64,000 bases of DNA, taken from contig JAFRRW010000011.1 of the NCBI GenBank assembly GCA_017427885.1, positions 248,001 to 312,000 of the forward strand, in the 5' to 3' direction. Every line of letters starts with the position of its first letter. Positions within the stretch are counted from its first letter, which is position 1. The translations under genes and the position numbers were made by a program. The notes beneath the pieces were generated by a model, which saw nothing but the letters and a program-made list of their open reading frames with translations, was not told the origin of the DNA and did not search any database. This stretch comes from Bacteroidales bacterium. GTDB taxonomy: Bacteria > Bacteroidota > Bacteroidia > Bacteroidales > UBA932. Positions 31,192 to 64,000 of this stretch are shown piece by piece.

Positions 31192-31281
31192 GTGCGGGAG
31201 ATGTCCCAAATAATTGCAGAGTACCCGCAAAAACGGCCTATTTTGCGGGAGATGTCCTTGTTTTTGGGACATCTCCCACAT
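31192..31281. repeat. 90-bp REP/BIME-like element, copy A
   Basis: First half TGCGGGAGATGTCCC... to CCCGCA, a short AAAACGGCC-like spacer, then a second half that is a long hairpin, here TGCGGGAGATGTCC/GGGACATCTCCCACA with a 15-position stem and a few mismatches. It aligns end to end with copies at 60705-60794 (inverted) and 63432-63521. It lies between the TraX promoter and the tRNA-Ala terminator, in noncoding DNA. Confidence 0.85.
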
Positions 31282-31448: not shown

Positions 31449-31449
31449 G

Positions 31450-31522
31450 TGGAGCATAGGAGGATCGAACTCCTGACCTCCAGATTGCGAACCTGGCGCT
31501 CTACCAGCTGAGCTAATACCCC
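31450..31522 (-). tRNA. tRNA-Ala (anticodon CGC)
   Basis: On the minus strand, acceptor GGGGTAT pairs with ATGCTCC and contains the G3-U70 wobble that identifies alanine tRNA. The anticodon stem-loop CCAGG-TTCGCAA-TCTGG gives CGC. The T-arm includes GTTCGATCC. 73 nt; CCA is not encoded. Confidence 0.93.
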
Positions 31523-60704: not shown

Positions 60705-60794
60705 CTGCGGGAGGTGTCCCTAAAACAGGGACATCTCCTGCAAAAACGGCCTTATTTGCGGGTACTCTGACGATTTTTGGGACATCTCCCGCAG
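60705..60794. repeat. 90-bp REP/BIME-like element, copy B (inverted)
   Basis: The reverse complement aligns with copies at 31192-31281 and 63432-63521 across all 90 positions. CTGCGGGAGATGTCCCAAAA opens it (on the minus strand), followed by ATCGTCAGAGTACCCGCA and then the palindromic half. Left-hand stem here is GCGGGAGGTGTCCC/GGGACATCTCCTGC with small changes. It fills the gap between the glycosylase stop and the GH39-like start. Confidence 0.85.
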
Positions 60795-62108: not shown

Positions 62109-62335
62109 TTTGATTCGTGATTGATTGTGTTCAGGTTTCCTTTCCGGACTATGACGAATTCGTTCTCATACGGCCGGCCCTCGCAAATCCGTTTCGTGCG
62201 GAATGTCTGGTACTTGATTTTCAACAGGTTCTTTACCCTGGAATCTTCGAACATCGCTGCCGCCGACCCAAAGTAGAAATGCTCACGGGAGTCCTTGACC
62301 TCCACGTGGATGATTGTCCTGTCGTGTTTTAACAT
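62105..62335 (-). CDS. Small unknown protein heading the DNA-repair operon
   Basis: 76 residues from ATG 62335 (MLKHDRTIIHVEVKDSREHF). No domain recognised; sequence is basic with a predicted beta start and helix (AAMFEDSRVKNLLKIKYQTF). I recall similar small proteins in Bacteroides but no function. Stop overlaps the AlkD-like start (ATGA), so it is part of the operon. A TATATTTG box on the minus strand (62348-62355) lies 13 bases upstream. Confidence 0.65.
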   Translation of the reverse strand: MLKHDRTIIHVEVKDSREHFYFGSAAAMFEDSRVKNLLKIKYQTFRTKRICEGRPYENEFVIVRKGNLNTINHESK

Positions 62336-62383
62336 TGTGCTGCTCCGCAAATATAACGATAATCTACAAATAATTCAGAAATG

Positions 62384-62413
62384 TTGAGTGTTTTAAACAA
62401 ATGTTTATCTTTG
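62384..62413 (+). promoter_or_regulatory. Promoter of the RAYT gene
   Basis: TTG (62384-62386), 19-nt spacer and TATCTTTG (62406-62413) match the Bacteroidota -33/-7 pattern well. It rules out the in-frame ATG at 62381 as the start and supports ATG 62447. Confidence 0.7.
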
Positions 62414-62446
62414 CTGAGCCGGGGCAAAAGAGCCGGAAGGATTATT

Positions 62447-63319
62447 ATGAGAGGGATATATTTGCTCACGACGGAACATCTTGAAAACTGCCTGTGGTTC
62501 CGGGATGAAGAGGATTTCAAAGTTGGGATGAACTACGTCGCCATACAGGCCGCCTGCAGTACGGAGGTAACTGTGCTCACCTTCATCCTAATGTCCAATC
62601 ACGTCCATTTCTTGTTGAACGGCAGGAAGAAAGACGTGATCGCTTTTGTCAATCAGTTCAAGCGCAGGTATTCCATTTATTACAGACGCAGGTACGGCGT
62701 CAAGGAATTCCTGAGGCACAATGGCCTGGACGTAAGGTTGATCCTTCAGGAAGACGAAGAGATGGAAAGGGCGTTTGCATATGTTCAGATGAACTGTGTG
62801 GCCGCCAATATCTGCGCCCATCCCGGTCAATACCCGTGGGGGACAGGAACCACGTTCTTCAGTCAGCAGGGAACCAGGGGAAAACGCTTGGGAGATTTAT
62901 CGGCCCGTGAACGCGAAAGGCTGATGCACAGTGAATGCAAAGGGCTACCGGAAGAATGGCGGATATGTGAAGAGGGATATGTCAACCCTGAGGAATATGT
63001 GGATGTCAGGACGGTGGAGGCCTGTTTCCGCACGCCCAATCGGATGAATTATTTCCTCAACAACTCCTCAAAGGCCAAGAAACGGATAGAAATGGCGGAT
63101 GACAACCTTCCGGCATTCCGGGACCAGACCATCCTCGCCTCCTTGCCGGACCTGTGCCGGAGCCTGTTCCAGAAAAGGTCTTTCGACCTCCTGCAGGCCG
63201 ATGAACAAGCCGAACTTGCCCGACAGATCCGTTTCCGTTTCAGTGCCGATCCCAATCAAATCGCCCGTGTTTGCGGAATATCATACCCGGAAGCCGCCCG
63301 GTTGCTTGACAGTATCTAG
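62447..63319 (+). CDS. REP-associated tyrosine transposase (RAYT, IS200/IS605-like Y1 family)
   Basis: 290 residues from ATG 62447 (MRGIYLLTTEHLENCLWFRD). The HUH motif is TFILMSNHVHFLLNGRKK (His52, His54) and the catalytic tyrosine is in ERAFAYVQMNCVAANICAHP (about Tyr112), giving a complete Y1 active site. The C-terminal ~90 residues include a helix-turn-helix-like segment DPNQIARVCGISYPEAARLL, probably for DNA recognition. No inverted-repeat insertion-sequence ends or direct target duplications are seen; instead the gene is directly followed by REP-like repeats, which is how RAYTs differ from ordinary IS200 transposases. It appears intact. Confidence 0.88.
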   Translation: MRGIYLLTTEHLENCLWFRDEEDFKVGMNYVAIQAACSTEVTVLTFILMSNHVHFLLNGRKKDVIAFVNQFKRRYSIYYRRRYGVKEFLRHNGLDVRLILQEDEEMERAFAYVQMNCVAANICAHPGQYPWGTGTTFFSQQGTRGKRLGDLSARERERLMHSECKGLPEEWRICEEGYVNPEEYVDVRTVEACFRTPNRMNYFLNNSSKAKKRIEMADDNLPAFRDQTILASLPDLCRSLFQKRSFDLLQADEQAELARQIRFRFSADPNQIARVCGISYPEAARLLDSI

Positions 63320-63449
63320 TTTCACCAGGAAAGGTGTTCCAACCAGGTTCGCTGCGGGAGAGGGGCTAACTATGTTTTCTGCCGGAAATGTCCCAACTAT
63401 GTTCGCTCGGGAAAGGGTCAAACGGGGTTCTCTGCGGGAGATGTCCCAA
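63320..63449. repeat. Tandem degenerate ~27-bp units between RAYT and REP copy C
   Basis: Units at about 63320-63342, 63343-63369, 63370-63396, 63397-63422 and 63423-63449. Consensus is CTATGTTCGCTGCGGGAAATGTCCCAA-like: TTC, then CTGCGGGA, then GTCCCAA, with substitutions in each. The last unit runs into REP copy C. The array begins at the RAYT stop codon. Confidence 0.75.
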
Positions 63450-63521
63450 AAATCGTCAGAGTACCCGCAAAAACGACCGATTTTGGGGGAGATGTCCCTA
63501 TTTTCGGGACATCTCCCGCAG
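63432..63521. repeat. 90-bp REP/BIME-like element, copy C, beside the RAYT gene
   Basis: Left half CTGCGGGAGATGTCCCAAAA... to CCCGCA; right half GGGGGAGATGTCCC-TATTTTC-GGGACATCTCCCGC forms a near-perfect hairpin of about 14 pairs. Starting 112 bases after the RAYT stop, it is the natural candidate for the RAYT's own substrate. Confidence 0.88.
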
Positions 63522-63659
63522 TGTGCCAATTAAACAACGTGACGTTCAAGCAGTGAAGCCTTTAAGCAATGTGTAATTTAAGAGTGCGCCTTTTGAACAG
63601 CGCGCCATTTAAGCAACGTGCCTTTTAAACAGTGCGTCGTATTAGGTGCGTGCCGTCAG
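63522..63659. repeat. Eight or nine degenerate 16-bp tandem units
   Basis: Starting right at the end of REP copy C, units of 16 bp (one of 15) follow the pattern (T/C)GTGCCTTTTAAGCA(G/A): 63522, 63538, 63554, 63570 (15 bp), 63585, 63601, 63617, 63633, then a partial unit at 63649-63659. No coding potential. The region 63660-63742 beyond it shows nothing I can name. Confidence 0.7.
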
Positions 63660-63742
63660 AAAAAAGAAAACCGCCGCTGTGTAAAGCGTCGGAAGCATAT
63701 GATGGATTCCCCGGCCCGAGGCCGTAGAAGGATATTTCAGAG

Positions 63743-63816
63743 TAGCGAGAGTGGGGCATGATCCCACGACCTCCGGATTATGAATCCGACGCTCTAACCA
63801 GCTGAGCTACCTCGCC
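63743..63816 (-). tRNA. tRNA-Met (anticodon CAT), probably elongator
   Basis: Acceptor GGCGAGG pairs with TCTCGCT, including two G-U wobbles (positions 1-72 and 7-66). The anticodon stem-loop CGGATTCATAATCCG gives CAT, and the T-arm is GTGGG-ATCATGC-CCCAC. 74 nt with discriminator A; CCA is not encoded. The non-initiator acceptor and the D-arm fit elongator Met; a lysidine-modified Ile tRNA is a less likely alternative. Confidence 0.88.
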
Positions 63817-63956
63817 GTGATGTACCGGGGATTCCGCTCGCTTCGCTTGCGCTATCCTTCCCGCCTGCGGCGGTGGTACATGATTTACAACCTTTTTCGG
63901 CTTCGCCAACTTTTTTTGTCGGAACTCTTATGTGAGTGCAACTCCCATCGCGTTCC

Positions 63957-63983
63957 ACAAAAAAAACCGGGCGCACAGCGCCA
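63957..63983 (-). terminator. Intrinsic terminator of a gene to the right of the window
   Basis: On the minus strand, GGCGC-TGT-GCGCC (63970-63982) is followed by CGGTTTTTTTT. The 63817-63956 stretch between it and tRNA-Met holds a few short GC-rich stems (for example ATGTACC/GGTACAT at 63820-63826 and 63875-63881) but no gene. Confidence 0.65.
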
Positions 63984-64000
63984 GGCTGTAAATTTGTTGA

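What the first reader, a model, noticed from the sequence alone, without database searches (positions are those of the whole stretch)
62384..63659. RAYT gene with an adjoining compound repeat locus: 27-bp array, 90-bp palindrome, 16-bp array
An intact Y1 transposase (HUH His52/His54, Tyr about 112) with a well-formed promoter is followed, starting at its stop codon, by about five degenerate 27-bp units. These are built from the same CTGCGGGA...GTCCCAA core that opens the 90-bp REP-like element beginning 112 bases downstream. A second array of 16-bp units begins at the exact end of that element. RAYTs normally sit beside one REP or BIME. A graded series of degenerate half-sites leading into an intact element, plus an unrelated array on the other side, is unusual and may record repeated rounds of transposase action. 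It could also be a reservoir from which REPs are spread.
Basis: partly seen in the sequence, partly recalled or inferred. Interest (0 to 1): 0.75.

Follow-up and report, generated by a model that had tools for sequence, protein, structure and literature searches.

The report
Transposase with private fixed-spacing double-hairpin repeat
A transposase-like bacterial gene sits beside a 90-base double-hairpin repeat that also stands at nine other places in the same genome and was likely spread by that protein; related bacteria carry such genes with differently spelled repeats, yet the internal spacing is almost always 51 or 52 bases.

Summary
The gene (62447-63319) encodes an intact HUH/Y1 protein; the best structural match of its model is the E. 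coli RAYT bound to a REP hairpin. The 90-bp element (63432-63521) is two hairpins joined by an AT-GC-AT linker. This genome has ten copies; no hit was listed in 148 other family genomes (shallow search) or in 11 searched deeply. A second RAYT here (57% identical) has its own, differently spelled doublet.

Across 63 related RAYT loci, doublets and/or arrays of their units were detected at 52. Sequences are mostly private to the RAYT: 76 of 84 sites lie in the cognate genome. In a scan allowing head spacings of 30-79 bp, all 73 flank doublets had 51 or 52. Three orthologous flank pairs differ by 51, 103 or 416 bp (1, 2 or 8 units). The degenerate 27-bp array has a 53-bp super-period, and relative L130 shows the same stop-array-doublet layout. 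The 16-bp array is real but unexplained.

Best reading: a REPtron variant without the GTAG foot, whose RAYT likely processes hairpin-plus-linker units; length stays constant while stem letters carry specificity. Enzyme activity is inferred. Dispersed copies are enriched on the 3' side of tRNA genes.

The parts
62406..62413 (+). putative -7 promoter box TATCTTTG
   Evidence: by eye; consensus recalled, no promoter tool run
62447..63319 (+). RAYT gene (HUH H52/H54, Y112), 290 aa
63320..63431 (+). degenerate head array, 27+26-bp half-units, period 53
63432..63521 (+). 90-bp double-hairpin element (doublet)
63433..63447 (+). head 1
63455..63465 (+). conserved asymmetric stretch GTCAGAGTACC in hairpin 1; CAGA and TACC invariant in 10 of 10 copies
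63470..63483 (+). linker (A-rich, GC core, T-rich)
63484..63498 (+). head 2, direct copy 51 bp after head 1
63506..63520 (-). inverted head closing hairpin 2
63525..63660 (+). degenerate 16-bp array, no link to the RAYT shown
60705..60794 (-). dispersed copy of the doublet (90%)
31193..31280 (+). dispersed copy of the doublet (89%), 168 bp from the 3' end of tRNA-Ala 31449-31522

Best explanation
This is a RAYT locus (a REPtron variant) whose protein likely recognises, as folded single-stranded DNA, its own ~90-bp double-hairpin element and is predicted to have spread it to the nine other places where it stands in this genome. Shown by sequence: in this genome the element stands as a whole doublet (head, same head 51 bp on, inverted head 72 bp from the first). 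RAYTs of the lineage have their own head sequences beside them. Head spacing is held at 51/52 bp while the sequence is free. Some orthologous arrays differ by whole 51/52-bp units. Inferred: the RAYT binds the hairpins, cuts in or beside the AT-GC-AT linker, and takes out and re-inserts hairpin-plus-linker units of 51/52 nt through a single-stranded intermediate, as IS200/IS605 relatives do. A unit added beside the gene would lengthen the array; a two-hairpin product inserted elsewhere would give a dispersed doublet. Stem letters would carry the specificity and co-evolve with the protein, so they turn over between species while the length set by the protein does not. The degenerate 27-bp array is likely an older, decayed run of such units.
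For: Catalytic residues invariant in 41 proteins and closest solved fold 4er8, RAYT with REP hairpin, E 2.6e-4. Ten copies in the genome; in a 464-kb sample the 0-1-mismatch heads lie in 10 complete triads, with one solo exception. Second RAYT with its own doublet. Element families: 76 of 84 sites in the cognate genome. Mantel r 0.448, 0 of 2000 permutations, n = 41. Spacing 51/52 in 50 of 51 validated elements and in 73 of 73 flank doublets with 30-79 allowed. Arrays of period 50-54: 20 arrays at 17 of 63 loci near the gene, 0 in 172 kb far from it. Unit-sized gaps of 51, 103 and 416 bp. Same-genus genome without a listed RAYT homologue (G072): 0 doublets in 400 kb, against 6 in 464 kb (G000) and 6 in 397 kb (G114).
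Against: No activity was tested. 8 of 84 sites lie in other genomes, and G091 carries a G113-type copy without a close RAYT. Some families hardly disperse (G014 2 sites, G134b 1). Copy numbers are low compared with REPs. The strict scan finds 46 of 63 loci, and 11 of 63 have no detected doublet or array (most of these look like degenerate doublets by eye). 8 of 11 flank alignments show no unit-sized gap, several with gaps of other sizes; L078/L082 also has a 55-bp gap of other sequence. Several loci are close relatives, so counts are not independent.
Confidence: 0.68

Rival explanations
1. Arrays grow and shrink by ordinary replication slippage or recombination; the RAYT spreads doublets but does not make the arrays.
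For: Unit-sized gaps are also what slippage gives; unrelated short arrays stand near some RAYTs (7 bp in L117, L118, L122), and the 16-bp array here is unrelated to the doublet.
Against: The same 50-54-bp period recurs in unrelated sequences near the gene and 0 times in 172 kb of far flanks.
Confidence: 0.35
2. The doublets are kept as transcription terminators or mRNA 3' hairpins at ends of transcription units, and the RAYT link is by descent only.
For: Most doublets tested beside RAYTs are close to gene ends; dispersed copies lie mostly on the 3' side when near tRNA genes (13 of 15).
Against: A terminator needs neither a private sequence shared genome-wide nor a 51/52-bp head spacing; doublets also stand 5' of RAYT genes.
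Confidence: 0.1
3. The element is a MITE of an ordinary DDE insertion sequence that uses the 14-15-bp terminal inverted repeats.
For: Perfect terminal inverted repeats and about 90 bp length.
Against: Internal head copy at fixed distance; element similarity follows RAYT similarity; no obvious target duplication by eye. A DDE transposase with such ends was not searched for.
Confidence: 0.05

Closest known systems
REPIN / BIME with RAYT of gammaproteobacteria (PMC3116915, PMC2817692; passages read)
   Same: RAYT beside a private inverted doublet that is the dispersed unit; repeat and protein co-evolve; the P. fluorescens R0 repeat is 89 bp
   Different: No GTAG/GTGG foot (3 of 51); about 10 copies, not hundreds; two direct heads plus an inverted one with 51/52-bp spacing; 50-54-bp arrays beside the gene
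TnpA_Y1 subclass 2.6 / group 5 of Bacteroidetes (PMC6006769; passages and sections 13, 20 read)
   Same: Bacteroidetes; atypical secondary structures with copies elsewhere in the genome; SS motif
   Different: HuH-Y distance 58 in 37 of 41 against median 82; 278-311 aa against median 179; Y motif YxxMN[CSP] against YIH[QN]NP
TnpA_Y1 subclass 2.1 / TIRYT (PMC6006769; PMC3733652, passages and section 16 read)
   Same: NHVH, HuH-Y distance near 58-67, SS motif, long C-terminal tail of helices; some TIRs are double palindromes and form families
   Different: No REP-like sequences were found beside 2.1 genes in that paper; GGGGWSAS motif 0 of 51 here; no HTH family passes its cut-off

Membership tests
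RAYT / TnpA_REP superfamily | HUH pair and one catalytic tyrosine | tested here: met
   H52, H54, Y112 invariant in 41; Pfam Y1_Tnp hit in 41 of 41 at E<=1, window 1.3e-6
RAYT / TnpA_REP superfamily | Fold of a solved RAYT | tested here: met
   4er8_A rank 1, E 2.6e-4, TM by target 0.52
RAYT / TnpA_REP superfamily | NCBIfam REP_Tyr_transpos above its cut-off | tested here: not met
   39.6 bits against 80 for the window protein; 41 of 41 members hit at E<=0.1
RAYT / TnpA_REP superfamily | Cognate palindromic repeat beside the gene and elsewhere in the genome | tested here: met
RAYT / TnpA_REP superfamily | Cleavage of cognate single-stranded repeat | not testable with these tools
   needs protein and oligonucleotides
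Canonical REP | GT[AG]G tetranucleotide at the hairpin foot | tested here: not met
   3 of 51 around outer feet, 3 of 51 around inner feet; about 13% expected by chance for the outer
REPIN | Inverted doublet is the dispersed unit | tested here: met
   10 of 10 copies aligned as doublets; heads in triads with one solo exception
Subclass 2.6 / group 5 | HuH-Y median 82, length median 179, YIH[QN]NP | tested here: not met
   58 in 37 of 41; 278-311 aa; YxxMN[CSP]
Subclass 2.1 / TIRYT | HTH-like C-terminal domain | tested here: inconclusive
   helices in the model; only weak HTH hits, HTH_29 in 1 of 41 and TrmB in 2 of 41
Subclass 2.1 / TIRYT | GGGGWSAS motif in the flanking repeats | tested here: not met
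   0 of 51

The most novel reading that the evidence does not exclude
A RAYT lineage that reads length rather than letters: the enzyme measures a fixed 51/52-nt hairpin-plus-linker unit, the unit's sequence is rewritten from species to species, and the enzyme builds species-private satellites beside its own gene while sending out doublets that settle behind tRNA genes. Sister RAYT lineages may carry other rulers (74 or 83 bp, or a 128-bp element).
Probability: 0.33. Interest if true: 0.82.

Novelty: new variant of a known kind. Interest (0 to 1): 0.62.

Why it matters
How RAYTs choose and move their repeats, and what the moving unit is, is still open. Here nature supplies dozens of enzyme/repeat pairs that share geometry but not letters, two of them in one genome. 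That makes it possible to map which residues read the stem and to test directly whether the enzyme requires a 51/52-nt unit. It also explains compound repeat loci beside RAYTs in this group as a recurring product rather than a curiosity.

Tried and rejected
Canonical REP (GTAG) and TIRYT (GGGGWSAS) labels were tested and rejected; subclass 2.6 was rejected on protein features. Phage origin: the distant search of 62300-64000 hit phage records only over the tRNA-Met stretch. A conserved GTCC..GGAC apex seemed general by eye but is weak: 30 of 51 against 19 of 51 shuffled; dropped. Linker columns are only weakly conserved when anchored on the heads, so only an AT-GC-AT pattern is claimed. The first concatenated search scored 2 candidates per genome and cannot count copies; one search replaced it for 12 genomes, and its list was cut by the tool. 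Sequence search of solved structures: 0 hits with the single protein, best E 0.27 with the alignment. Order-level search: 0 of the 294 genomes other than G000 reach 1e-45. No relative of the 16-bp array was found beside other RAYTs; L087 has a 16-bp array of other letters about 0.7-0.9 kb upstream. Target duplications were looked for by eye only.

Rows dropped before counts: fragments L157 and L158; duplicates L120, L135, L145, L150; L131 and L132 (internal stop in the translation) from the protein alignment only. 14 of 65 outer palindromes failed the inner-copy test and were dropped; some of them are true doublets caught off register. Arrays give several of the 73 doublets. The tRNA test used 51 dispersed copies; RAYT-flanking copies and several sites listed (some G114c arrays, G067- and G079-type sites in G134) were not fetched for it, and its baseline is G000 alone (10 tRNA genes in 464 kb). 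One paper search used a cut-off word with whole-word matching and so could find nothing; another asked for five terms at once and found 0.

Full report
What is there. The ORF 62381-63319 is best started at ATG 62447, where relatives align. The protein has H52/H54 and Y112, invariant in 41 aligned proteins. It matches Pfam Y1_Tnp, and its AF2 model (pLDDT 88.8) has 4er8, the E. coli RAYT bound to a REP hairpin, as best PDB match. Behind the stop come a degenerate array of period 53 built of 27+26-bp half-units, the 90-bp element, and a degenerate 16-bp array. For both arrays 0 of 1000 dinucleotide shuffles reach the observed periodicity.

The element. Three heads, TGCGGGAGATGTCCC, nearly the same again 51 bp on, and its inverse 72 bp from the first, make two hairpins joined by an A-rich / GC / T-rich linker. 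G000 has 10 copies; the nine others are 80-90% identical over about 88-90 bp. In the alignment of all ten the mean column identity is 87%; heads are invariant or nearly so, loops vary, and CAGA and TACC of an asymmetric stretch that breaks the pairing of hairpin 1 are invariant. In a 464-kb sample the heads with 0-1 mismatch stand in ten triads, with one solo exception. So the doublet is the dispersed unit, as in REPINs (PMC3116915, passages).

One RAYT, one element. G000 holds a second RAYT, 57% identical. Just behind its stop is a doublet of the same build with other letters, with hits at three further places on the same contig, one of them upstream of that gene. Of 149 family genomes 48 hold a homologue at 1e-20. 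I gathered 63 non-duplicate loci of the close lineage (where named, mostly Bacteroidales MAGs from ruminant stomachs; one record, L125, is titled Clostridia). Fifteen elements searched in 12 genomes gave 84 sites for 14 families; 76 lie in the genome of the cognate RAYT, 8 elsewhere (list cut by the tool, sites within 300 bp merged). RAYT and element similarity correlate (Mantel r 0.448, 0 of 2000 permutations, n = 41). Yet at 70-74% protein identity element similarity can already be near the shuffled background (L116/L115 0.06, L128/L127 0.09; 95th percentile of shuffles 0.08).

The spacing. Of 65 outer palindromes in the flanks (33 of 63 loci at 3', 32 of 63 at 5', shuffles of the 3' flanks 2 of 63), 51 also hold inner copies beyond shuffled interiors. 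In 50 of these 51 the direct head spacing is 51 (25) or 52 (25). A second scan that allowed 30-79 found 73 doublets within 600 nt of the 63 genes, at 46 loci, and all have 51 (29) or 52 (44). Far flanks (173 kb) held 7, three at 51. Tandem arrays of period 50-54: 20 at 17 loci near the gene, 0 in 172 kb far from it. Of 11 flank alignments between close relatives, three show a unit-sized gap: 51 bp (L078/L082), 103 bp (L117/L122), 416 bp = 8x52 (L118/L122). The others show none or gaps of other sizes. A strict de novo scan found 0 doublets in 400 kb of the same-genus genome G072, for which one search lists no homologue. It found 6 in 464 kb of G000 (5 at 51, 1 at 73 through an extra head) and 6 in 397 kb of G114 (4 at 51, 1 at 52, 1 at 72) (it misses some known copies). 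With arrays counted, 52 of 63 loci have a doublet, an array or both; most of the 11 others look like degenerate doublets by eye. Of 20 distant RAYT loci, six gave a doublet call, with spacings 52 (L095), 74 (L096, L104), 83 (L109), 62 (L097) and 55 (L111); L097 and L107 share a 128-bp palindromic element.

The compound layout. Stop - degenerate half-unit array - doublet also stands at L130, whose RAYT is 60% identical and whose letters differ (the doublet there was read by eye and fails the strict palindrome test). Half-period repeats inside 50-52-bp arrays are also reported, with weaker scores, for L084, L085 and L086. The 16-bp array has no counterpart that I could link to the RAYT.

Where copies settle. 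Of 51 dispersed copies from 11 families, 15 have a tRNA gene within 500 bp, 13 of these on the tRNA's 3' side. For this window's own family it is 5 of 9. Noncoding positions in G000 give 5.7% and 3.3% (binomial tails 9e-8 and 9e-9). The baseline is one genome with crude ORF calls, and copies are treated as independent. The window's own doublet lies 221 bp from the tRNA-Met at 63742-63816.

Mechanism. Shown: largely private sequence, fixed geometry, whole-doublet dispersal, whole-unit length differences at some orthologous loci, link to the RAYT by genome and by correlated divergence. Inferred: single-strand binding and cutting by the RAYT, hairpin-plus-linker as the unit cut out, and decay as the origin of the 27-bp array. 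E. coli TnpA_REP processes single-stranded REP and needs its GTAG foot; in a Marinomonas system changes in that motif shifted the cut site (PMC8266576, abstract and first part of the Discussion). Here the foot (3 of 51) and the W[EQ]/FQ motif before the tyrosine (0 of 41) are missing. Another guide is then needed; the linker and the asymmetric stretch are candidates.

Known or new. RAYT-repeat co-evolution and REPINs are known. Atypical structures beside Bacteroidetes genes are noted briefly for subclass 2.6 (PMC6006769). This lineage fails the protein features of 2.6 and looks more like 2.1, for which that paper reports no REP-like sequences. I saw no report of a fixed 51/52-bp unit or of placement behind tRNA genes in ten searches of the open-licence library (two of these were poorly set). 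The 2017 RAYT classification paper was not held and figures and supplements were not seen, so absence in print is not proven.

Noticed in passing
31193-31280, 63432-63521; L003, L005, L006, L008 and ten loci of other genomes: Dispersed doublets are enriched near tRNA genes, 15 of 51 within 500 bp and 13 of those on the 3' side, against 5.7% and 3.3% of noncoding positions.
   Followed up: partly
L095, L096, L104, L109, L097, L107, L111: More distant RAYTs have doublets with other spacings (52, 74, 74, 83, 62, 55) or a shared 128-bp element, as if each lineage had its own ruler.
   Followed up: partly
window 63525-63660: 16-bp array, real but without a known partner or relative.
   Followed up: partly
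L231:12689 (copy L007): A dispersed copy is also preceded by degenerate heads, a small version of the array beside the RAYT.
   Followed up: no
L287:5430 (G114): A doublet with 51-bp spacing and letters not matching the G114 elements used here; perhaps an orphan family.
   Followed up: no
G091:C51:12959-13046: G113-type element in a genome whose best RAYT hit is distant (1.5e-28): possible loss of the RAYT or a gap in the assembly.
   Followed up: no
L117, L118, L122, 3' flank: 7-bp arrays (GAACTGA / GAAGTGG) or a 14-bp array stand behind the 52-bp arrays, an unrelated second array as in the window.
   Followed up: no
L119 and L120: Two differently named MAG contigs are 99.98% identical over 5461 bp, so these two species representatives are not independent here.
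   Followed up: no
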